This document shows positions 9,773-60,170 of a DNA stretch of 64,000 bases, piece after piece; the stretch's first letter is position 1, and each line of letters begins with the position of its first letter. The translations under genes and the position numbers were made by a program. This DNA comes from Hyalella azteca (taxonomy: Eukaryota; Arthropoda; Malacostraca; Amphipoda; Hyalellidae), in contig NW_025943963.1 in assembly GCF_000764305.2 (NCBI RefSeq), forward strand, positions 154,303 through 218,302, written 5' to 3'. Under the pieces are notes generated by a model that was not told the DNA's origin, searched no databases, and saw only the letters and a program-made list of their open reading frames with translations.

Positions 9773-9820
9773 ATGTCAGGTAGCACTGAACAGCGTGTGG
9801 CTCAAGCACTGGCTAATCGG
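9773..9820 (+). CDS. TSG101: TSG101 exon 1 (start)
   Basis: ATG plus 15 codons (MSGSTEQRVAQALANR), ending at donor CGG|GTGAGT, phase 0. It corresponds to the N-terminal helix of the UEV. The start was chosen because it is the first in-frame ATG and gives the length expected for the family. Confidence 0.92.
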
Positions 9821-12800
9821 GTGAGTAGATAATCTTTTAAAATTTAGAGGAAAGCTCTCGAATTTATTGATTATTTTTTATTGAATTAAATGAATTAAAA
9901 TTGTGGTTTCATTTCAATTTGCTTTTTATCAGTGATTACAAAATATATATTTAATTCTTAGATTACTGGTATGTATAAATTAATTAAAATAATTCTAATT
10001 ATTAATAAAAAAATGCACTGGACACATTTTTATTAGATATGATTATTTCTGTTATTTGACTTATATGAATTATTTGAGTATACATCTTACATGGAATGGC
10101 ATTAATTGATTTAGGTTGGATGTAGCTTTCTCATTATATTTCATAGAATTGTTTGAAATGTTCTATCATTTTTCATGTCTCTTCATCCTATTGGTATTTT
10201 ATAGTAAATTTTGAATGCCTTTATTTCACAGTATCAACATGTTGCCAAGACCAAGACGGACTGTATGAATTTACTCAACCAGTATCGAGGCCTTGCTGCC
10301 AAATTGGATAGATTTGGTAGGTTGTGCCCATTATCTGTCTTTAGTTCTTTGTCATTTCCTGTGAACTTTTATGACTATTGTGATAGGATTGGTAATAAGA
10401 TATGGATTGGTAATAAGATAGAATCTATCTTATTACCAATATGGATTGTTAATAAGATAGATTCTAAAATATAATGATATAGGTAATGATTCAAGTAGTA
10501 TACAAGTTTAAACATCATTGCTCTTGAGGCTTGGTAATGTTTACAAATTAAAGGATGCATAAGATATACTTTTTTGTATATCTGTTGTATGTATAGGATA
10601 TGTACAGAACTTGCCAAATATGCAACGTCTATAGAGATAATTTTTAATGATATCCATAATTTTGTTAGTTAAAGATATTGACTCTACACAGATAAACTCA
10701 ATGAAATACACAAAAAATATAATTTCCATCATTACCATAGTTGTCATTTTTATTAGATTGTTAGTAAATTTTAAATAAATTAATTCATTGATGATAGTGT
10801 GATTTCAATTTTTTGCTCAAGGGTTCTGGTTTTTTGTGTAATCTTGTGTATAATTTTGAATAATCTTATATTTTGCCATATCAAATATAGTACTCTATCC
10901 ACCTTCATGATGATCATATACTCAGCAATAAATTTGTTAGCTCATCACTCACTAGTTCTACCTTCTCTGTACATGACTTGTACCTCTCCACTCTCATGGC
11001 ATTTTAATTATCACTTCCTCATATTCAAGTGTTTAATGATGGCATCACAAAGCAGTTACTCACACTGGATGGTACCATTCCTGTACCCTTCAAGGGTGAG
11101 TTTAATGAGGCCTTAATGTTACTGCTCTGCCTGAAAGATCTCCTGTTACATTTCCTCTCCATGCATTATTTGCCTGTTAATTTTCTCAGTATTGAGATCT
11201 GCTGTGCCATCTTATTTGCATTGATTGCATTTCAATAGGTACTTGATTGCTTGTATATCTACTTATGGACTGGGATGTAAACATTTTGATGAAATCTCAC
11301 TTGCAGCAATCATGTGGGAAGTATAAATGACTGATTAGCCTGTTTCATTGTTCAAATGACGACACAGAGAATCTTAAAATGCATTTGAAGGCTGTGCATG
11401 TGATCTTTCAGGCTTGCATGAGTATGATGCTTGAAAATTACATTGGCTCACCTGCTGATGCTGCTGTTTGGTTTTAATAAAATTTGTGGCTAACTAAAAC
11501 TCATGTGGAAATTGCCACAAATTTTCTTAACCACAACACAGTTTTGCAGAGGCCAAATTTTCTATCATTCTGTGATTCTCATTACTTGTCTCTGTCTCGG
11601 CCTGCTTCTGAAGTGTTTAGTAGTGGAACATCCCGCTACCTGCTGTGTCTTGAGGGAACTATACCTGTTGTCTACAAAGGTAATACAATTTCATTGTTGA
11701 CAAGATGCTGTGAAGCCTTTATCCTGCCTTGCACCTTCTTCCTGTTGCATTGCACTCTGTGACTGTGCTTAATTTCTTAGTTACAAAAAACCTCTCCTAC
11801 TCTCTCTTTGTCAAAAGTTGTTTCACACCTGAACTGAAGTGCTTAAATTTATTCTTACACAAACTTTCAAAGTTGGCTTTCATGTTGATATTTTATTGTT
11901 TCTGAGTGGATGCCCAATTTCTCTCAATTCCTGATGTATGGTAATGGAGTTTTCTGGCCAGAAAGGCAAATTTATTACCTAATATATTTGGTCTGCTACA
12001 ACATATGTACTAGTCTAGTTAATTATTTATTCTTTAATGTCAGCTTTACTTATGCTGCAATTATTTATTTGCATCGGCTGCAAGTTGTGACACCTGTATT
12101 AATTAACTCAACCTAATGTAAATATATTGAAATTTCTGGATTTTTTTAATAGCCTTGCTTCTAATTAAAGTATACCTGTATACCATATTGCTTTTCTTGG
12201 CTTCTGTCCACTTATAATTACTTGCAATGGTGAACTCCTTAGGTTCTCTGCTATAAGAAGGCTAGAAACTTTCTTGCCAATTAGAATGCTATGTGTGAAA
12301 TATTGAAAAACTCATTGTATTTCTTATGTTTGTGATTTTATTTATTATCAAAGAATTCACAATCTTGTTATCAAGTGATGTTTTGAATAGTTCTATTAAT
12401 GCAACTGACACTTATATTATTATCTTTACATCATCCAATATTTTGTAGTAGAATGTACAACCTATCATTAAGGATTTTATATATGTGCTAAATATTGTAG
12501 GTAGCACCTACAACATCCCCATCTGCCTGTGGATATTGGACACCCACCCATACTCTGCCCCCATGGCTTTTGTCAAGCCGACTGCAGATATGCTCATCAA
12601 GGCCTCTAGGCACGTCGACCAAAATGGCAAGATCTACTTGCCTTACCTCCATGAGTGGAATCCAGTAAGTTTTTGTTCCATATTGAACTTGAAGAGTGCA
12701 TATATCTCATCATGTTCAATATTTTTTTCATATATGTTTTATGCTAGTACAGACCTCATCATATGGGATGATTTTCAGTATATATTGAACAAAACATTTT

Positions 12801-15800
12801 CATAAATTTCAGTGAATATCAAAAAAATTGATTTGCATGCAATAGCTTCAAAATATCAGTTATCATGTTCATCTCCATATTTGTATTCACTGAAGATATC
12901 TTGTATTCTAACAACCTGTGTTACACTAAAAACTTATCATGTTTAAATAAGTTTTCTAGTATAATTATTTGTTTCAGGACGTTTCAGATTTGATTGGCCT
13001 GGTGCAAGTGATGATCATGACGTTCAGTGAGATGCCTCCTGTCTATGCAAAACCTAAAGGAGCGCCTCCTACTCCAGCCCAGCCTGCCATGCCATACCCA
13101 ACTACCCCGTATCCTACCCAGCCAAGTGAGTGCACATCATGTTAGCACGCTGTGATAACCTTATTAAATTGTGATGATCTATTGGCTGTACTTAAGAGTG
13201 ATGGACTCGTGTATGACATTCATGTTGCGTGTGTGATGCACACTTGTTTTGTGTGTGACACACGTATCTCGTGTGTGAGACGCGCTTGTCTCGTATGTGA
13301 GACGAATTTCTCGTTTTAATGCTAATAGAATAGGTATTTATGCCGTTGGTTCAGTTCTTCATGCTATCACTTAATTACATTCACAGTCTAGAATCGCATC
13401 TTGTCTATACCTGGTCCTGGTTGATCTGATCAGGGTCAGCTGAGGAGATCTCTAACTTGATCTCTTTTTACAACACTTCTCTTTAACTTCACTTCTTGTT
13501 TGTTTGTTTGTCTGTCTGTCTGTCTGCTACAAATCTTATAATCAAAATTTAACACACTTCTACTTATCTTATCGATCTGAAATTTTGCACACTTGCGTAA
13601 AGTTGGAGACAATGCATGAATCAAATGACAAAATAAATGATTTTAAAAATTAAAAAAAAAAATTCAATACTGTATTAAAAAATTGAAAAAATAATTTTGT
13701 CAGCTACAAATCTTATAACTGATATTTGACACACTTTTACCTGTCCAATTGACATGAAATTTTGCTCACTTGTGTGAAGTTGGAGGCAATGCAGGAATCA
13801 ATTGACAGAATAAATAATTTTGAAAACAAATTTTAAATATTAAAAAATAAATTGAATTTTTTTTAATATTCGAAAATGAAGTTAGAAATTCATTTTACAT
13901 CTGTAACATTGGAAACACCGGATTCTTTAGAAGTGTTGTCTTTAAAAAGTAATTTTTAAACGTATATTATTATTATTACTTACAACACTTCTCTTTAACT
14001 TCACTTCTTGTCTGTTTGTCTGTCTGTCTGCTACAAATCTTATAATCAAAATTTAATACACTTCTACTTATCCTATTGATCTGAAATTTTGCACACTTGT
14101 GTAAATTTGGAGACAATGCATGAATCAAATGTCAAAATAAATGATTTTAAAAAGTAAAAAAAAAATTTATAATAAAAAAATTGAAAAAATAATTTTTGTC
14201 AGCTACAAATCTACAATGCATGAATCAATTGACAGAATATATAATTTTGAAAAAAAGTTATATATATGTAAAAAACTGAAAAATTAATTTTTTAATATTT
14301 GAAAATAACATTTGAAATTCATTGTACATCTGTAACATTGGAAACACTGGATTCTTTAGAAGTGTTGTCTTTAAAAAGTCATTTTTAAACGCATATTATT
14401 TAAATATCAACACCCAATGAAGAAATAGTTTTTTTTAATTTAAATTGAAATAATGCTCATTTTCTAAAGTTTTCAATAGTTTTGATGGAGATCTGTTTGG
14501 CAGGTTACCCGGCATACCACGGAGGAGCGGGCTACCCTCCCTCCAACACAGGGTATCCTGCACCAGCATATCCTCCCTACCCGCCCCCCGGCAACTTGCC
14601 CTACCCGACACCTTATCCTACTCCTGCTGAGGTATGCAACCCTGCAGAGGTAGGATTACTGCTATTCCTCCTCCATTTAAGGTAGCAACCTTGCTGGTGT
14701 AGGATTACCTCTATTCCGCCTCCATCTAAGATATTAATATTTGCAGAGGTATGATATTAGCCATATCTTTGCTTTGAATATGTTGAACTCAGTTTATACG
14801 TATGTAAGATTAGAAGTACGAATTAGGTCTAAGTAGTTCATTTTAGTTAGTTAGTTTTAGTTTAGTTTTGGTTTAGTTAATGAAGGAATACAATTATTTT
14901 CAACATTATTGATTTGTCTTATATTCTTGATGCTGTCACTGGTTTTGTCTTGTGATGGCACTAACCCAAGTTACTCAATTGAAATAAGAAATGTTTATTT
15001 GTTAGCCTAAAATGTGAAGATTGCTACCGGAACTCAAAGTCGAGCTCATATTTCTTGAGTTGGTTACTGAAGTTTTTGAAATGTTAGTTGAGGTTATGTT
15101 TAGTTAATAAGCTATGTGATGAAGTTCTGAGTTAGTTCTGAAATGTTACTGCTTCATACTGTCTTTTATTGGTTCTTATATTTGTTCTTATTTCTGTGCA
15201 GAATACTCTAGCTGGTGGCTCTGCTTCCATGGCCGCTGCTGCAGGAAATACGGGCACCATAACTGGTACAAAGCAATGAAATCTTGGCATTAATTTTCCA
15301 TGCATACTCTCTTTCTCTGGGTTTTAATTATAGGTAGTTATGGATCACCCTAATGAATAAAGAGTTCTTATCTTTATCTATTTGTGTTTCTCAATGCATT
15401 TATTTTGGGATTAACATGAGCTTCTTTTTAACCTCATCTTTGCCTGAATGTCAATAGCTTTGGAAATTCAAAGCTACGTATGAATTTTAGAATTTTTTCC
15501 AGATAATTACGTCGGTTTATTGTATCCATCAGCTTGATATGACAGCGTGTAGAGTGTTGTCATTGACGGTAGTAGGATTAGTTCCTCCTGTACAACATCA
15601 TATTCTTTGTACACTGTAACACATTCCTTGTACACTGTAACACATTCCTTGTACACTGTAACACATTCCTTGTACACTGTAACACATTCCTTGTATACTA
15701 AAAAGTTCCTGGTGTATTACAGAGGAACACATTCGCCTGTCGCTGGTGTCTGCAGTAGAGGACCGAGTGCGTGACAAGCTCCGCGAGAAACACGGCGACG

Positions 15801-17036
15801 CGCAGGCCGAGGTTGCGGTGCTCAAGCAGCAGAAGGCCGACCTCGAGCGAGGGCGCGCCAAGCTCAACAATATGATCAGCAAACTCCAGGCTGAGCAGGT
15901 TACTTTAAAATAAGTTAAATGAAAAAACTATGCAACTTTTTACCTGAGAATTGAATATTTTTTTAATGCACTTTTTTAAACTATGCGTCTTGTTTACCCA
16001 AGCGTGTAGGTTAGAGTACTAGACCTGCACCAGGTCCGCTATTACTATTCTATCAGGCCTAAAAAGAAAATATAACACGAACATTTTATATTCAATGTGT
16101 ATATATTCATTGAACATACTAGTTATTTATGCAAACTTACTTTCTCCATTTTGCCTTTCCCATAGGTATACAGGTATGCATATATATTGCAACCATGCTT
16201 GATTGAGTGGTTATAAACATTTCATATGATTTTTTGGTCCTGTAGAATTTATTTTGATTTGAGAGTTGTCGACTGTAAGTTTGTTTACAAGTGTTTTTTT
16301 TTTTTTCTCACCACATACAATAGCACCAACTGTCAGGACAAGAATAATATATTCGATTTATTTTCTGTACTTGATGAAGAACATATATATTTACATTATA
16401 AATAATATATGTGTTTAATAATATAATAATTATAGTATAACAATATTTTGCCAGAACGAAGTGAATAAAAGCATCCGTGTGCTGAGGGAGCGTGAGGCTG
16501 AGCTCCGTGGTCTGGTCGAGCAGAGCGAGAGCACTCAGAAAGAATTGGACATCGATGAAGCCGTGACCACAACCGCACCTCTCTACAGGTCAATAATTTC
16601 AACTCCTGCCTGCTATTCTATTATTTTCCTAAAACTTTTGAATGTTCATTAATTTTGCCCATGGGGAAATATTAATCACCAAATATCTTGCCAACGAATT
16701 TTTTAAATTAATGTTCGGAAAGTTGAGTGCTGTGAATTTTCATTGACGGTAGTTCGTTAGTTTATCATTCAAGGCCAGAACGCTAGTCTGATCACAATAT
16801 GGACAAACATTATTGTTCTGAATTACTAAATTGTGGGCACCTGCAGGCAACTTGTAGCTGCGTACGCGGACGAACAAGCCACCCAAGACGCTATATATTA
16901 TCTGGGCGAGGCCCTGAGACGCTCAGTGCTCGACCTGGACACGTACATGCGCCACGTGCGCGCTCTCAGCCGTCGACAGTACCAGCTCCGCGCCACCATG
17001 TCTCTCTGCCGGCAAAAAGCAAACCTTGCCCCATAA
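9773..17036 (+). CDS. TSG101: TSG101 (ESCRT-I subunit, UEV protein), complete, with an alternative exon pair
   Basis: Coding exons: 9773-9820, 10232-10316, 11030-11095 (3a) or 11614-11679 (3b), 12501-12664, 12978-13125, 14504-14631, 15202-15265, 15723-15898, 16455-16588, 16847-17036. All have GT-AG boundaries and keep frame, giving 400 residues with either 3a or 3b (human TSG101 has 390). Order: UEV domain about 1-147 (GTIPVP, TYNIPICLW, GKIYLPYLHEW), Pro/Tyr-rich linker about 148-234, coiled coil about 240-320, C-terminal steadiness box about 335-398 (YYLGEALRR). TSG101 binds ubiquitin and P(T/S)AP motifs through the UEV and joins VPS28/VPS37/MVB12 to sort cargo into multivesicular bodies; it also acts in abscission. 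Met95, Tyr68, Asn69 and Phe88 of the human protein have matching residues here. The C-terminal PTAP motif of human reads TTAP. Confidence 0.97.
10232..10316 (+). CDS. TSG101: TSG101 exon 2
   Basis: Acceptor TTATTTCACAG, donor TTTG|GTAGGT, ending in phase 1. Encodes YQHVAKTKTDCMNLLNQYRG and LAAKLDRF, aligned with human residues about 15-42. The split Val codon is completed identically by either exon 3a or 3b. Confidence 0.95.
10406..10440. repeat. Perfect inverted repeat in TSG101 intron 2
   Basis: Arms of 16 bp (ATTGGTAATAAGATAG and its complement) around a 3-bp loop, flanked by further GGTAATAAGATA copies at 10390-10405 and 10447-10460. A tight hairpin in RNA or DNA. Confidence 0.85.
11030..11095 (+). 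CDS. TSG101: TSG101 exon 3a (alternative UEV exon)
   Basis: Acceptor ATATTCAAG, donor CAAGG|GTGAGT, 66 nt, phase 1 to phase 1. Encodes VFNDG...GTIPVPFKG, aligned with human residues 43-65. It keeps Asn and Asp at the positions of human Asn45 and Asp46 and has Phe in place of Tyr63. Either this exon or 3b completes the UEV fold. Confidence 0.93.
11614..11679 (+). CDS. TSG101: TSG101 exon 3b (duplicated alternative UEV exon)
   Basis: Acceptor CTTCTGAAG, donor AAAG|GTAATA, 66 nt, phase 1 to phase 1. Encodes VFSSG...GTIPVVYKG, clearly homologous to exon 3a with no gap. It has Ser-Ser at human Asn45-Asp46, keeps Tyr63 and changes Pro62 to Val. No stop, frameshift or splice-site loss. The equal length and phase strongly suggest a mutually exclusive exon, though splicing has not been observed. 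Inclusion of both, or skipping of both, would also keep frame. Confidence 0.88.
12501..12664 (+). CDS. TSG101: TSG101 exon 4 (UEV core)
   Basis: Acceptor ATTGTAG, donor CCA|GTAAGT, phase 1 to 0. Encodes GSTYNIPICLWILDTHPY, then FVKPTADMLIKASRHVDQNG and KIYLPYLHEWNP. It contains the residues matching human Tyr68, Asn69, Phe88 and Met95 that line the P(T/S)AP and ubiquitin surfaces. The catalytic Cys of true E2 enzymes is absent, as in all UEVs. Confidence 0.96.
12978..13125 (+). CDS. TSG101: TSG101 exon 5 (UEV end, start of Pro-rich linker)
   Basis: Acceptor TTGTTTCAG, donor CCAA|GTGAGT. Encodes DVSDLIGLVQVMIMTFSEMP and PVYAKP (human PPVFSRP), then a Pro/Ala/Tyr-rich stretch. Phase 0 to 1. 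Confidence 0.96.
13470..13939 (+). mobile_element. MITE-like element in TSG101 intron, copy 1
   Basis: Starts ACAACACTTCT and ends AGAAGTGTTGT (inverted 11-bp termini). It has a TTTGTCTGTCTG run near the left end and an interior GATCTGAAATTTTGCACAC motif. Two copies lie nearly in tandem here and a third lies at 25491-25752. No coding capacity. Confidence 0.65.
13982..14368 (+). mobile_element. MITE-like element in TSG101 intron, copy 2
   Basis: Same termini (ACAACACTTCT / AGAAGTGTTGT) and interior as the copy at 13470-13939, in the same orientation and 42 bp downstream. It is shorter through an internal deletion. Its end lies about 135 bp before the acceptor of the next TSG101 exon. Confidence 0.65.
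14504..14631 (+). CDS. TSG101: TSG101 exon 6 (Pro/Tyr-rich linker)
   Basis: Acceptor GTTTGGCAG, donor GAG|GTATGC, phase 1 to 0. Encodes a linker of YP, GYP and PYP repeats, about 43 residues. A second in-frame donor (GAG|GTAGGA) 18 nt downstream at 14649 would add six residues (VCNPAE). It lies in a short local duplication of about 50 bp spanning 14632-14730. Confidence 0.93.
15202..15265 (+). CDS. TSG101: TSG101 exon 7
   Basis: Acceptor TTTCTGTGCAG, donor ACTG|GTACAA, phase 0 to 1. Encodes NTLAGGSASMAAAAGNTGTI then the split Glu codon, which with the next exon gives the conserved TI-x-E-x-x-IR junction before the coiled coil. Reading through the weak donor would end five codons later (TGA at 15277). 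Confidence 0.9.
15603..15700 (+). repeat. 21-bp minisatellite beside a TSG101 acceptor
   Basis: About 4.7 tandem copies of ACATTCCTTGTACACTGTAAC ending about 22 bp before the acceptor AG at 15721-15722. It lies in the usual branch-point and polypyrimidine zone of this intron. Confidence 0.85.
15723..15898 (+). CDS. TSG101: TSG101 exon 8 (coiled coil)
   Basis: Acceptor GTATTACAG, donor CAG|GTTACT, phase 1 to 0. Encodes EEHIRLSLVSAVEDRVRDKL followed by a Lys/Gln/Glu-rich heptad region. It matches the human SEDTIRASLISAV start of the stalk that assembles with VPS28 and VPS37. The exon is much richer in GC than its introns. Confidence 0.95.
16455..16588 (+). CDS. TSG101: TSG101 exon 9 (end of coiled coil, TTAP)
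   Basis: Acceptor TATTTTGCCAG, donor TACAG|GTCAAT, phase 0 to 2. Encodes NEVNKSIRVLREREAELRGL and onward to DIDEAVTTTAPLYR. The human equivalent of TTTAPLY is IPTAPLY, so the first Pro of the internal PTAP is replaced by Thr. Confidence 0.95.
16847..17036 (+). CDS. TSG101: TSG101 exon 10 (steadiness box, stop)
   Basis: Acceptor CACCTGCAG, ends at TAA 17034-17036. Encodes QLVAAYADEQATQDAIYYLG and EALRRSVLDLDTYMRHVRAL, the conserved C-terminal domain that binds VPS28 and sets TSG101 protein level in other animals. Confidence 0.97.
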
Positions 17037-30455: not shown

Positions 30456-31660
30456 TTAGATTTTATATAATTCTAGTAGTAAACTTAATGTAATTTATGT
30501 GCGGTAAGACATGACTCTTATCGATAATGAACTGCAGGCTCTTCTCATTTGTATCTCTTTATCATCCGTTATTATTAGCAGCTGCGCTTCATGAAAGCAG
30601 TATTCATCCAATTAAGGCGGGTGATGAAAAAAATTCATCCTACCAAGTATTTCGTTACTTGTCCAATTTAAATTTCACTTCTCTGGAAGTTGAAGGGTCT
30701 TGTGTGTTGGTCATCCTGATTCAGTTTGGCCAGACAAAAGGGCGGATCAATGCTATGTGCTGGAAGTGTGTCACCATTTCGACAATATTACCTATTCATT
30801 TTTCTGGGTCTCCCAAGGGGTCGGTACCAGGGACCGTACTTTAAAAAACTCGCTCAAGTACACGTAGCGGCCGATTTATCGACTGAAGTTAGTAGGTTTA
30901 ACATGAAAAGGCGTCGGTGATTGCCTGACGGAGTTACAAACTCGTAACTATTTATGCTAGTATGGCCATTGACTTCTAGATATAAATAACACCATTGACG
31001 ATGGTTGGTTTATCCTAGACCGTTGATTAAATCTCATGAATTTAGTCTGTTATCTAATCTAAACAGTGCCGGCAATTTTATTTTTACGATGATCATTTTT
31101 TTTGTCGTATTTTGTGGTGGCCTGAAAGCCCTGAGCTGTTCATCTCGCTCGTACGACTTTACCTCACCGATTGTACTCGTATGCACCTAAAATGGTTACA
31201 AAATAAAAATTAATGAATGTGTGATTGTATCTCATTCATATCTTTTAACATTTCTTAAGTCTGACTTATCCCGCAAATTGTTTCATTTTATGCCATATTA
31301 ATTCTCATTTGCTTTGAGGTGAATTTAAAAGGTTCCCTATGAAAATCTTTATTCTGAAGAAATTTGGTGTCTGCAAGCTGAATGAAATAAGAGCAATTGG
31401 CGAAAATACGAGACGCCAATTTAGCGAACTGATTAATCAAAATTTGTGTTGCGGGCTACGTCAACCAATGTTGCCCCACTAACCAAAATCAAGAATTTAA
31501 GAGCAAATAAAACAGCCAAGAAATTTACCATATCTTAAGAATGAATTTATTCTTAAGAAAGGGTGAGTTTTTTGGCTATATTCTTTGCTTTTTAAGTCTT
31601 TATAAACTTGCGATTTAAGCAATCAAGTGATTGTAATACTTATAACCAAAACCTATTCAG
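30456..31660. other. Non-coding region before the GILT-like exons
   Basis: I looked here for an exon carrying the GILT CxxC active site and found none. No other gene recognised. Confidence 0.5.
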
Positions 31661-32565
31661 ACGACAGAGAAAGCTGGACAGCTGACATTCCAGTGCCAAC
31701 ATGGCGGCACTGAGTGCCTCGCTAACAAGGTGCACGGCTGCGTCACGCGCCACGTTAAAGACCAGTTACTGCAAACACGCATCGTTGAGTGCATGATAAG
31801 CAATAACTACAAGCCTCTTCTTGTTGGCGAGAAGGTTAGTTTTTTTAAGATATTCAGCAAGTCGAGCTTTCTCATAAATGTTTTCAATTCGCTGATGAAA
31901 GATTTTGTAGTTCGTAAAAATGATAGGTTGTGTAATTTTTGCGTTGATGCACATAACATTCAGTCTTTAACTCGACTTGTGAATTCATCGTTAAATTTTA
32001 TGAATTCACAAAATTGAACGATTATCATGTACTACATCTATAATTGTACGTGGCAATTCATTAATACGAAATGAATATTAACCCTCTACCGTCGTATGTC
32101 ACTCTCCGGGAACATAACTTTTAACTTAAATTATGCGTAAACTATTGAGTGTAGAAAGCTGAGGACGTTTGTACGCAACAGAGAACATTTCAAAGTTGCC
32201 GTACGTGGCGGCAACCATCAGTGCAAGTCATTTTGCGCTCACTAGAACGTATCCTTTTTGGGAAGTAGGCTTGTGACAATATTGCTCCGGTTACTCGTGC
32301 CATGGGGTAGAGGGTTAAATGTTAATACAGTAAAGATATTCATAGGACTTTGTTAAAGGTCGTCTTGCGTTGCAGTTGTGAATTCACAAAAATGAACAAT
32401 TATCTTGTACTGCGTATATAATTGTACATGGCAATTCATTAATCCGCAATGAATATATATAGTTAAAACAGTAAAGATATTCAGTAAAGGTTGTGTTGCG
32501 TTGCAGTGCGTGTCGTCGATAGCAGGAGCGGACGCCTGGCCCGTCATCAATGACTGCGCTGGCTC
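31661..32565 (+). CDS. GILT-like thiol reductase, two internal exons (partial)
   Basis: Exon 31661-31834 (acceptor CCTATTCAG, donor GAGAAG|GTTAGT) encodes QLTFQCQHGGTECLANKVHG then C, an exact fit to the GILT signature CQHGxxECxxNxxxxC, followed by a helix-like stretch ending VECMISNNYKPLLVGEK. Exon 32507-32565 (acceptor GCGTTGCAG, donor GGCTC|GTAAGA) encodes CVSSIAGADAWPVINDCAG, matching the next Cys-rich part. Phases agree (0, then 2). GILT enzymes reduce disulfides in lysosomes. The CxxC exon, the signal peptide and the C-terminal exons were not found, so this may be a gene with long introns or a fragment. The joining intron holds a duplicated acceptor and a MITE. Confidence 0.75.
31979..32374 (+). 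repeat. Intron tandem duplication, copy 1 (with decoy acceptor)
   Basis: Runs from GTGAATTCA...ACAAAATTGAACG to the acceptor-like TTGCGTTGCAG at about 32364-32374 and matches 32376-32506 in order once the element at 32082-32314 is removed. Its AG is followed by sequence that does not continue the GILT-like frame. Confidence 0.75.
32082..32314 (+). mobile_element. piggyBac-like MITE with TTAA target duplication
   Basis: Ends CCCTCTACC and GGTAGAGGG are exact inverted repeats, flanked on both sides by TTAA (32078-32081 and 32315-32318). TTAA duplication with CCC-starting termini is typical of piggyBac-type elements. 233 bp, no coding frame. It interrupts copy 1 of the intron duplication. Confidence 0.75.
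32376..32506 (+). repeat. Intron tandem duplication, copy 2 (ends at the used acceptor)
   Basis: Uninterrupted copy of the unit, ending TTGCGTTGCAG directly before the second GILT-like exon. Confidence 0.75.
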
Positions 32566-42215: not shown

Positions 42216-42525
42216 GTAGGAGGGCAGGAGGGAAGGAGGTCCAGGAGGGCAGGAGAGGAGGAGGGGCAGTGAGGCAGGAGGGAAGGAGGGCAGGAAGGGC
42301 AGGAGGGGCAGGGAGGACGGAGGGAAGGAGAGCAGGGGGGAAGGAGGGCAGGAGGGGCAGGAGGAACAGGAGGGCAGAAGGGAAGGAGGGGCAGGAGAGC
42401 AGTAGGACACTAGAGGCAGGAGGGAAGGAGGGCAGGAGAGAAGGAGGGGCAGTGTGGAAGGAGGGAAGGAGAGCAGGAGGGAAGGAAGGGCAGGAGGGGC
42501 AGGGAGAACGGAGGGAAGGAGACAT
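42216..42525 (+). repeat. Polypurine (AGG/AGGGC) tract of about 310 bp
   Basis: Almost all purine on the plus strand, built from AGGAGGGCAGGAGGGAAGG-like units. It is open in several frames on both strands only because it has few T or complementary stop triplets. Many GGG/GG runs give it potential for triplex or G-quadruplex structure. Confidence 0.9.
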
Positions 42526-46728: not shown

Positions 46729-46975
46729 CCCAATAATGTCACTACCCGAATAATGTTATTACCTGAATAATGTTACTACCCGAATAATGTTACTACCTGA
46801 ATAATGTTACTACCTGAATAATGTTACTACCCGAATAATGTTACTACCTGAATAATGTTACTACACGAATAATGTTACTACCTGAATAAAGTTACTACCC
46901 GAATAATGTTACTGCCTGAATAATGTTACTACCCGAATAATGTTACTGTTACCCGAATAATGTTACTACCCAAAT
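46729..46975 (+). repeat. 17-bp minisatellite, about 15 copies
   Basis: Unit GAATAATGTTACTACCY with Y mostly alternating C and T. Few length changes, so array turnover looks recent. Confidence 0.92.
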
Positions 46976-49900
46976 ACTATAAAAATAGGTGCGTACTTAT
47001 TCCGTTCAATTATCACCTTTGGTGAAATTGCACCAATAGTAGAATTGTGTCGGTTTGCATGAAGATTTCGTTAGGATAAAAAATTCTACATACGCACTTG
47101 AATAACCCCCAGTATTTTCCAAAGACGAAACTTAAAATCTGCTTCTTCGTATTATCTTTTTGCATTTCTAATTAAAATCATCATAAGCAAATTATTTTAT
47201 CATCGCTCCCTCATTTTAAGAAGATTCTGTGCATAGGTATACAGCATAGAAGAATAAAACAACATATAGTAACTTATGGGGAGGTATTGCAGAGAATATG
47301 TATTAAATTGCCGATAACGTGACTGAGCTACGGACATCAGCGTAGCCGCTGAGCGTGAAAGGCAGATCAATGAATGGGGTATACGGATATATTAGTCATA
47401 CAGATATATTAGTCGGTTAGAGCGACCACTCAACACCCAACGCGATGCCAGGGATATTTGAAGCAAATGATTTCCAATGCGTCCAAATCACCATTTTCTG
47501 ATTTGCTATATATAATGTGTCAAATTCCAAGATGATAAAATTATATTCCCAAATATATGATGAATTCCCAAATATGAATTCCCAAAATATGTTTAACAAT
47601 GAAGCTAAATTATGTAAAATTAATACCCTCATGTTGATTTAACATGTTAAATTAACACCTAAGCTGAAATTAATGTTGAACATAAAACTAAATTAGGGGG
47701 TAACATTGAATAGTAACATCAAAGAAATTTAACATGATTTTAATTTTAAGACGATAAAATTAAATTCCCAAACATATGAAATATTCCAAAATTGAAAAAT
47801 GGGTAAATAGAGAGAGATTTTTTTATCTTCATATTTCTATATCGATATTTCGGCATTTTCTTTGTAAAATTTGATAGCATCGTTGTAATAAGAGTTAGTA
47901 AGCAAATACAGAGTAAAAAAACTGTATTGTCTAATGTAATGTTGCAGCAATACGTTTTTATGATAAATACACTTGTAATATAATATACTCGATTCAAACT
48001 GTCTCCACGACCCTATTAAATATTGATGTAACTTAGATGATTGTGCGCCAAAATCGTTCAATTCCAGTATGCGGGCTCGTAATAATTGCGATAATTGCTA
48101 ATTCAAACATGAGTAAAATCTAACCTGAAAAAGGCTATTGATTTTTTTTTCAAAGACTGATTTAAAAATAAAATTGTTTATTGCAGCGCAAGTGTGTAGA
48201 AAAACAAATTTCAGTTTTTACTCACAACTTCTGAGGAAATGAACTTTTAGCACTTTTAAATTTTCACAAATCTTTGAGGCTCCTGGAAATTTTCAGGCTT
48301 GTATAGTTGGTTGTTTTCAACTATGAAGCTAAATTATGTAAAATTAAGACTTTCATGTTGATTTAACATATTAAGTTAACACCTAAGTTCAAACTAATGT
48401 TAAATTTAGTTACGGCTAACATTGAATAGTAACAATTAAACAAAATGTAAAGTATATTTTCCTAGCAATGATGATTTAAACTGCTTAAACAGTGCCTACG
48501 AGTGTAAACAAAATTTCAAAAGTCTCTAAATATATTATTAACATAAATTAGATATCTGGTGGTCATTTGTTTAATTTTATGTCATTGTTATATGCCCTAA
48601 TTGGCCGTAGGGAAAGATATGAAACCAAGTGACATATTCATATAAATTTCGAATGGATTTTTTTTGCAACTCAAAACAGCATGGGTTCTTTTCAAAGGCG
48701 TACATAATATATGTTTAGTTAGCATACTTTTGTCGTACGTCATTTTTACACACTACGGAGCAACGCAGTTTTTTTACAGAACAAAAGAAAGGAAAAAATG
48801 TACCATTACGTGTGAATTTCCTTCCAGAAATGAATTTTCTTACGTACCATTTCAAAATCTGACGATTCACACCATCGAAGCTCAATAGTTCCATTATAAC
48901 TCTATTACGCCATTGAAGCTCCATAATCACCAAAATAACTGACTGTACTATTGAACAAAATTATTGTACACGCGTATCAAGTTTTTCCATTGCCCAGAAA
49001 AATTAATAAGACATCTATCTATAGTTTTCGAAATTTCTGCATAGAGCTGCGCTCCTTTAATGCAAAACACAAACAAAAAACTCTCAAATCTCAAATCAAA
49101 TCTAACGTAGAAATGAATACGAGGAAAATAAAAGAGTATTAAATTACGGTTATTTTTTAAAGGAAAAAAATACCAAATTTTTTAATAATGCATATCATTA
49201 ATTAATTTAAATATATTTGTGAAATGATGTTAAAAGGCACTCGGTAGAATATCTTTGACTGATGTGAGTCTGTTATTAATTATTCCAGCATCGACAGAAT
49301 TAAAAACATCCACTGCTATGATTTAAACCGTATTTAAACTAGTATAAAATTTTGACACAAATTAGGCTCCAACTTTTAAACTTGTAAAACTTTTCTTCCG
49401 GAAAAAATTGAAGGCTTTTTTGTGTTTATTGCTGGGATTACTGCAATAAATCACCATTAAATTTTATCAGTGGCTTTTAGGCGGGTTGGGTGATTTCGCC
49501 TCAGTACTCCGTGGAAATATCGATGGATGGATCATAGGAGACTGGGGGCAATCTCTTCGGTTGATGGATGGATACTACAAGAAAAACTTGGCAACACATA
49601 CGTGGATGCATAATCCAAGTCCTACTATAGTATGTAGCATGAGCAGCACTATTTATAATCCAAGTCCTACTACTACAGTACCGGTATGTAGCATGAGCAA
49701 CACTATTTAGGCATCACAAGAGAGAGAGAGAGGAGAGATTAATGTTAAGTGTCTAGGCATGCTGCCTTTTTGGTTTTATAAAACGGTTTGGAACAGAAGA
49801 GATTTCTTTCTAAATATACAATTGAATTCCTGTTAATAAAATCTGAACAAATCTCTTTAATGTGATGATCAAGTCGCAAAACAATATGCGTGTGATACTA

Positions 49901-57449: not shown

Positions 57450-57725
57450 GTATTGTTCCAGTCATTATTTCTCCAGTCAAATTATGATCATGGTTCGAGT
57501 CATGATTTCTCCAGTCAAGTTATGATCATGGTTCATGTCATGATTGCTCCAGTCACATTATGATCATGGTTCGAGTCATGATTTATCCGGTCAAATTATG
57601 ATCATGGTTCTTGTCATGATTCCTCCAGTCAAATTATGATCATGGTTCGAGTCATGATTTCTCACGTAAAATTATGATCATGGCTAGAGTCATGATGCCT
57701 CCAGTCAAATTATGTTCATAATCAA
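57450..57725 (+). repeat. 38-bp tandem repeat, about seven copies
   Basis: Unit contains GTCATGATTTCTCCAGTCAA and ATTATGATCATGGTTCGA. Copies are contiguous without spacers. Confidence 0.9.
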
Positions 57726-59928: not shown

Positions 59929-60042
59929 GATTACACGTGCTGTGATTCACAACGTGATTACACGTGCTGTGATTCACAACGTGATTACACGTGCTGTGAT
60001 TCACAACGTGATTACACGTGCTGTGATTCACAACGTGATTAC
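59929..60042 (+). repeat. 27-bp minisatellite, four copies and a partial
   Basis: Unit GATTACACGTGCTGTGATTC plus ACAACGT, nearly identical between copies. Being a multiple of three and stop-free, it creates a false repeat protein frame. Confidence 0.92.
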
Positions 60043-60170
60043 AAATACAGAATAACAAATGGCTGAACACCGCGGGGTCAAGCGCCGTGCCCCTGTACAG
60101 GATAACAAATTAGGAACATGGCCAGGATAACAGGAGCCGTAAACCACCACGTCCAGCTCCAAGAAACTGA

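What the first reader, a model, noticed from the sequence alone, without database searches (positions are those of the whole stretch)
11030..11679. Duplicated, probably mutually exclusive exon inside the TSG101 UEV domain
Seen directly: exons 3a (11030-11095) and 3b (11614-11679) are both 66 nt, both phase 1-1, both with intact GT-AG sites, and align without gaps (VFNDG...GTIPVPFKG against VFSSG...GTIPVVYKG). Either one joins exon 2 to exon 4 to give a complete UEV. Known from human TSG101: this segment carries Val43, Asn45 and Asp46 of the ubiquitin surface and Tyr63 of the P(T/S)AP groove. Form a keeps Asn-Asp but has Phe63; form b has Ser-Ser at 45-46 and Val62-Tyr63. Inference: the animal makes two ESCRT-I forms, one tuned to ubiquitin and one to PTAP ligands or weak in ubiquitin binding. 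I know of no described TSG101 exon pair of this kind.
Basis: partly seen in the sequence, partly recalled or inferred. Interest (0 to 1): 0.92.

Follow-up and report, generated by a model that had tools for sequence, protein, structure and literature searches.

The report
Swappable ubiquitin-binding exon in crustacean TSG101
This amphipod gene for TSG101, a core part of the cell's ESCRT membrane-cutting machinery, carries two versions of the small exon that builds its ubiquitin-gripping hairpin; the second version is found almost unchanged in prawns, lobsters, crabs and krill, so these animals probably make two functionally different forms of the protein.

Summary
The window holds an intact 10-exon TSG101 gene; with exon 3a its protein equals the Hyalella azteca database record. 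Exons 3a (11030-11095) and 3b (11614-11679) are both 66 nt, phase 1-1, GT-AG, 12/22 residues alike, and either completes a UEV domain (153.4 and 153.9 bits). 3b is the only other exon-3-like open stretch in the 64 kb.

3b is an old coding exon: I found it in amphipod, decapod and krill records, 18 of 22 columns invariant in 9 sequences (13 of 22 in 15 3a sequences). Asn45 and Asp46 of the ubiquitin-binding hairpin are replaced in all nine. Cockroach and stick-insect records show a second copy too, with Ser-Asn there.

Limits: strict mutual exclusivity is not shown. Records with both copies and with neither exist, and I found no device that enforces exclusion. The likely meaning, untested, is a swapped hairpin that weakens or redirects ubiquitin or HECT-ligase contact. 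Ten paper searches listed no such pair, but isoform records are already public.

The parts
9773..9820 (+). TSG101 coding exon 1 (start codon at 9773)
   Evidence: 3a-form protein identical to P0004, Hyalella azteca TSG101 isoform X1
10232..10316 (+). TSG101 exon 2, ends in phase 1
11030..11095 (+). exon 3a: canonical hairpin exon, Asn45-Asp46 kept
   Evidence: donor-U1 pairing energy -10.1
11096..11613 (+). 518-nt intron between 3a and 3b
11614..11679 (+). exon 3b: duplicated hairpin exon, Ser45-Ser46, Tyr51, Cys54
   Evidence: relatives; donor-U1 pairing energy -6.6
12501..12664 (+). TSG101 exon 4 (UEV core), starts in phase 1
12978..13125 (+). TSG101 exon 5 (end of UEV, start of proline-rich linker)
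14504..17036 (+). TSG101 exons 6-10 (14504-14631, 15202-15265, 15723-15898, 16455-16588, 16847-17036): linker, coiled coil, C-terminal core, stop codon

Best explanation
TSG101 exon 3 was duplicated in tandem in an ancestor of at least the amphipods, decapods and krill, and both copies were kept as alternative exons. Exon 3 codes for the end of beta-strand 1, the hairpin tip and strand 2 of the UEV domain, that is, the ubiquitin-binding hairpin. Choosing 3a gives the ordinary form (Asn45-Asp46). Choosing 3b gives a UEV predicted to fold normally whose hairpin tip has lost both residues and gained fixed Tyr51 and Cys54. Shown here: the exons, their coding nature, the conservation, and the predicted fold (of the Panulirus 3b form). 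Inferred: that both are used in Hyalella, as a rule one at a time; that form b binds mono-ubiquitin weakly, or binds another partner through the hairpin (another ubiquitin form or a HECT ligase), while the PTAP groove stays usable; and that splicing factors make the choice, with 3a as default because its 5' splice site is stronger.
For: Exon anatomy and full reading frame. Pfam UEV 153.4 and 153.9 bits. 3b stands out from 34,555 open windows. 3b-type exons in Trinorchestia, Palaemon, Panulirus, Cherax, Macrobrachium, Meganyctiphanes, Eriocheir and one unnamed krill-like record. 18/22 columns invariant in nine 3b, 13/22 in fifteen 3a. Amphipod-eucarid mean identity 88% for 3b (14 pairs), 69% for 3a (21 pairs), 82% for the next 74 UEV residues (39 pairs). 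Malacostracan 3b group support 0.959. P0011 (unnamed) differs from Panulirus ornatus isoform X3 at 10 of 437 positions, 9 of them in exon 3, so it looks like the 3a form of the same or a very close species. P0010: 3b joined to its neighbours in a 447-aa frame on a 2,233-nt contig, probably an assembled transcript. AlphaFold model of the Panulirus 3b form: pLDDT 92-94 over the exon; best PDB matches are human TSG101 UEV, among them 1s1q with ubiquitin. N45A is described as ubiquitin-binding deficient (passages of PMC2958808 and PMC10231130).
Against: No RNA reads were available, so use in Hyalella itself is not shown. Some records carry both copies (P0001, P0005) or neither (P0032, P0033), so exclusivity may be leaky or absent. 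Pairing between the three introns is no better than in shuffles. 54 of 94 other sequences, many of them Lepidoptera, have Asn-Asn at 45-46, so loss of Asp46 alone is common. The a/b sorting used the Asn-Asp motif itself. Comparisons rest on 22 residues, and pairs are not independent.
Confidence: 0.77

Rival explanations
1. The two exons are alternative but not exclusive: each is a separately regulated cassette, and transcripts with a, b, both or neither are all made.
For: All four combinations keep the frame. Models with both: P0001 Trinorchestia, P0005 Palaemon isoform X5, P0108 and P0113 Timema. Models with neither: P0032 Penaeus vannamei isoform X5, P0033 Chionoecetes. No exclusion device found.
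Against: 19 of the 21 malacostracan records counted carry one copy, 2 carry both; P0032 and P0033 lie outside that count. Gene predictors can chain every exon, so tandem models may be artefacts (general knowledge). In the AlphaFold model of the tandem Palaemon form copy a sits in the sheet and residues 77-91 of copy b (73-94) are below pLDDT 50; that model leans on an alignment made mostly of single-copy sequences.
Confidence: 0.3
2. 3b keeps ubiquitin binding; it is a tissue or stage version with neutral or subtle differences, kept for regulation rather than for a different ligand.
For: Val43, Gly47 and the hairpin length are kept in nine of nine 3b sequences; the predicted fold is unchanged.
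Against: Both ubiquitin-contact residues differ in nine of nine, while 3b as a whole varies less than 3a. Of 94 other sequences (first match per record) one lacks both Asn45 and Asp46, and it is itself an alternative form, Periplaneta X2.
Confidence: 0.2
3. 3b is a dead duplicate that only looks like an exon.
For: No RNA evidence from Hyalella; the 3b donor pairs less well with U1 than the 3a donor (-6.6 against -10.1).
Against: Open frame, intact sites, third-position excess of differences, 0 of 20,000 neutral simulations as similar; near-identical 3b peptides in decapod and krill records; on the same U1 measure the 3b donor is stronger than those of exons 4, 6, 7, 8 and 9 and weaker than those of 1, 2, 3a and 5.
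Confidence: 0.02

Closest known systems
Mutually exclusive exon clusters of arthropod genes (criteria as in PMC3228551; muscle myosin heavy chain and N-cadherin as examples seen in the listing)
   Same: Neighbouring internal exons of equal length, same phase, homologous, coding the same structural element.
   Different: Exclusive use is not shown; models with both and with neither exist; the gene is a core ESCRT-I subunit, for which my searches listed no report of such a pair.
Human TSG101 UEV domain (PDB 1s1q, 7zlx)
   Same: Same domain and predicted fold; exon 3a keeps Val43, Asn45 and Asp46.
   Different: Form b replaces residues 45, 46, 51, 54 and 62 as a block. Whether human TSG101 has a second exon 3 was not examined here.
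Periplaneta americana TSG101 isoforms X1 and X2
   Same: Two 407-aa forms that differ at 10 positions, all within exon 3, listed on a contig of the same length; X2 has Ser-Asn at 45-46.
   Different: The X2 exon does not group with malacostracan 3b in a short tree, so it may be an independent duplication.

Membership tests
TSG101 (ESCRT-I, Vps23 family) | N-terminal UEV domain | tested here: met
   PF05743 at 153.4 (3a) and 153.9 bits (3b), cut-off 27; PDB TSG101 matches at E 1.8e-52 and 1.6e-50
TSG101 (ESCRT-I, Vps23 family) | C-terminal steadiness box core (PF09454) | tested here: met
   the window's 3a protein equals P0004, listed with PF09454 and PF05743 as precomputed domains; not scanned anew
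[quoted passage not shown]
   66 nt each, phase 1-1, GT-AG; criteria from passages of PMC3228551
Mutually exclusive exon pair | homologous sequence, both copies conserved in relatives | tested here: met
   12/22 identical; 3b type in 9 and 3a type in 15 malacostracan sequences
Mutually exclusive exon pair | exactly one exon per transcript | tested here: inconclusive
   19 of 21 malacostracan records carry one copy, 2 (P0001, P0005) both; P0032 and P0033 carry neither; no reads available
Mutually exclusive exon pair | a built-in device that enforces exclusion (frame, short intron, U2/U12 mix, competing RNA pairing) | tested here: not met
   all combinations in frame, 518-nt intron; all sites GT-AG; pairing between introns no better than in shuffles. 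Regulation by proteins cannot be tested here.
Ubiquitin-binding TSG101 hairpin (form b) | Asn45 and Asp46 at the hairpin tip | tested here: not met
   Arg/Ser45 and Ser46 in 9 of 9 3b sequences; Asn-Asp in 15 of 15 3a, which were sorted by that motif
Ubiquitin-binding TSG101 hairpin (form b) | measurable ubiquitin binding | not testable with these tools
   needs purified protein

The most novel reading that the evidence does not exclude
Some arthropods run two ESCRT-I versions from one gene: a ubiquitin-reading one, and one whose hairpin has been rebuilt to ignore mono-ubiquitin and read another signal. The rebuilt hairpin, kept almost unchanged from amphipods to lobsters and perhaps remade in cockroaches and stick insects, would let cells switch ESCRT-I between ubiquitin-dependent cargo sorting and other membrane cutting by splicing alone.
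Probability: 0.4. Interest if true: 0.82.

Novelty: new member of a known kind. Interest (0 to 1): 0.66.

Why it matters
TSG101 reads two signals, ubiquitin and P(T/S)AP, with one small domain, and how far the two functions can be separated is an open matter (passages of PMC8232796). A natural form in which only the ubiquitin-binding hairpin is exchanged, and which has been kept almost unchanged, would be a ready-made separation-of-function tool and a splicing switch in the ESCRT pathway. A similar second copy in cockroach and stick-insect records hints that this spot is a favoured place for such a switch.

Tried and rejected
Rejected: 3b as chance or as a decayed duplicate. A third copy: the scan of open 66-nt stretches in the window found none.

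Led nowhere: a full duplex fold between whole introns (50, 50 and 24 of 60 shuffles paired as well or better) and an ungapped stem scan (92, 29 and 30 of 100). The one outlying stem is a hairpin inside intron 2. A dN/dS ratio could not be computed because synonymous sites are saturated (NG86 dN 0.42, dS undefined). The 22-residue tree supports the malacostracan 3b group (0.959) but puts Periplaneta X2 among crab 3a sequences (0.912), which speaks against one common origin of the insect and crustacean second copies; with so few columns it decides little. Timema copies were not in that tree. No tRNA or Rfam match in the window.

Dropped rows: one search listed 120 of 131 hits. One search treated 21 of these 120 as malacostracan and counted 94 of the other 99 in which its pattern matched (first match per record). 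P0022, P0032, P0033 and P0118 were not among the 21. In one search Armadillidium missed the 3a pattern and P0011, P0013 and P0017 were not in the set. Structure jobs used 49 and 50 of the 120 proteins.

Full report
What was checked. The window carries a complete TSG101 gene on the + strand. Ten coding exons (9773-9820, 10232-10316, 3a 11030-11095 or 3b 11614-11679, 12501-12664, 12978-13125, 14504-14631, 15202-15265, 15723-15898, 16455-16588, 16847-17036) give 400 residues with either copy of exon 3, with GT-AG introns throughout. With 3a the protein is letter for letter P0004, named TSG101 isoform X1 of Hyalella azteca in the database, so the window is almost certainly this amphipod.

More than chance. 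The two 22-residue segments share 12 residues without gaps. Of 34,555 open 66-nt stretches on both strands, 3b scores 63 against 3a; the next scores 25 and the mean is -22.1 (SD 10.1). Differences fall 7, 7 and 15 on codon positions 1, 2 and 3. A neutral simulation at the third-position divergence gave an open frame with so many identities in 0 of 20,000 runs. No third copy shows in the window (all). Both spliced forms score as full UEV domains, 153.4 and 153.9 bits against a cut-off of 27, and both find human TSG101 UEV among PDB sequences, at E 1.8e-52 and 1.6e-50.

Relatives. A search with the 3b part alone found four proteins among five candidates: Trinorchestia longiramus, Panulirus ornatus isoform X3, Cherax quadricarinatus, and Hyalella's own 3a-form record. 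A wider search from the Panulirus form gave 131 hits, 120 listed. Among 21 records that I took as malacostracan I count 15 exon-3a and 9 exon-3b sequences, the Hyalella 3b taken from the window; Hyalella (window plus record), Trinorchestia and Palaemon show both. Sorting was by the Asn-Asp motif, so that difference is in part by construction; the others are not. A fourth likely pair: P0011, unnamed, differs from the Panulirus ornatus 3b form at 10 of 437 positions, 9 of them in exon 3, so it looks like the 3a form of the same or a very close species. Thus 3b occurs in Amphipoda, Decapoda and Euphausiacea (lineages of three species), which dates it at least to their common ancestor.

3b varies less than 3a. 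In nine 3b sequences 18 of 22 columns never change; in fifteen 3a sequences 13 of 22. Between amphipods and eucarids the mean identity is 88% for 3b (14 pairs), 69% for 3a (21 pairs) and 82% for the following 74 residues (39 pairs). Sample sizes differ and pairs are not independent, so this is an indication, not a test. Hyalella and Trinorchestia 3b are identical, 22 of 22; their 3a agree in 19 of 22.

What differs. In human numbering, states that do not overlap between the two sets are residue 45 (Asn against Arg/Ser), 46 (Asp against Ser), 51 (Glu/Met/Gln against Tyr), 54 (Asn/Thr against Cys) and 62 (His/Pro/Arg against Thr/Val). Of 94 other TSG101 sequences in the list (first match per record) one lacks both Asn45 and Asp46, the Periplaneta X2 form, itself an alternative form. 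But 54 of the 94 have Asn-Asn, so loss of Asp46 alone is common.

Why the place matters. Passages read in PMC8232796 and PMC9944984 describe an extended beta-hairpin linking strands 1 and 2, special to the UEV, that binds mono- and di-ubiquitin; in the latter paper residues V43-S48 also come near the HECT domain of Nedd4-1. N45A is used as a ubiquitin-binding-deficient mutant in PMC2958808 and PMC10231130; passages only. That Val43 and Asp46 also contact ubiquitin and that Tyr63 lines the PTAP groove is recalled from the structural literature, not read here. In the AlphaFold model of the Panulirus 3b form the strands are 38-46 and 52-66, so exon 3 (from residue 46) is the end of strand 1, the tip and strand 2; pLDDT there is 92-94, and the best PDB matches are human TSG101 UEV, including 1s1q, the ubiquitin complex. 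The fold is predicted to be kept while the contact surface changes. No 3a form was modelled for comparison.

Use of the exon. I had no reads. Indirect signs: records named isoform X3 (Panulirus) and X8 (Macrobrachium) contain 3b alone, and P0010, an unnamed krill-like protein, has 3b joined to its neighbours in an unbroken 447-residue frame on a contig of 2,233 bases, most simply an assembled transcript. Against strict exclusivity: P0001 and P0005 carry 3a then 3b in one chain, and P0032 (Penaeus vannamei isoform X5) and P0033 (Chionoecetes) carry neither. All four combinations are in frame in Hyalella too. A predicted model of the tandem Palaemon form puts copy a into the sheet and leaves most of copy b disordered; this leans on the alignment.

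How the choice might be made. The 3a donor pairs better with U1 than the 3b donor (-10.1 against -6.6), and the pyrimidine share upstream is equal (0.75 each). The intron between them is 518 nt, all sites are GT-AG, and pairing between introns is no better than in shuffles. So no built-in exclusion device is visible; control by splicing proteins is my inference.

Second copies elsewhere. Periplaneta americana isoforms X1 and X2 (407 aa each) differ at 10 positions, all in exon 3, with Asn-Asp against Ser-Asn. Timema tahoe and Timema podura models carry two copies in a row, the second with Ser-Asn. A search with the Periplaneta X2 exon found only Periplaneta (3 proteins among 5 candidates). The short tree does not join Periplaneta X2 to the crustacean 3b. 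Either an old pair was lost in many insects, or the same exon was duplicated more than once; in each case the second copy lacks both Asn45 and Asp46.

Literature. Ten paper searches, six of them combining TSG101 or ESCRT with alternative or duplicated exons or isoforms, listed no paper that by title or start of abstract describes such a TSG101 pair. Only open-licence papers are held, long result lists were cut (20 of 324 shown, 12 of 28), and most listed papers were not opened. The isoforms themselves are already in public databases.

Verdict. The kind of system (paired alternative exons) is known; its place in TSG101 and its effect on the ubiquitin hairpin appear undescribed in what I could search. 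Function is untested.

Noticed in passing
window 14630-14734: A 49-bp tandem duplication at the end of TSG101 exon 6 creates a second in-frame donor 18 nt downstream (GAG|GTAGGA) that would add VCNPAE to the linker.
   Followed up: partly
window 10386-10466: Near-perfect inverted repeats of 15-22 nt make a strong hairpin in intron 2, about 560 nt upstream of exon 3a; stem score 77 against a shuffle mean of 33.3, reached by 0 of 100 shuffles.
   Followed up: partly
window 31646-32014: Open stretch with a partial GILT (gamma-interferon-inducible lysosomal thiol reductase) domain, PF03227, E 1.5e-12.
   Followed up: no
window 42218-42515, 46732-46976, 57455-57719, 59929-60043: Tandem arrays: AGGAGGGC-type repeat, 17 bp x 14.2, 38 bp x 7, and a perfect 27 bp x 4.3.
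   Followed up: no
proteins P0022 (Meganyctiphanes norvegica) and P0007 (unnamed, lgn): Each appears to hold two UEV-like segments in a row, perhaps tandem UEV genes or fusions.
   Followed up: no
protein P0015 (Homarus americanus isoform X2): About 20 extra residues directly after the exon-3a segment, as if exon 4 used an upstream acceptor or another exon were included.
   Followed up: no
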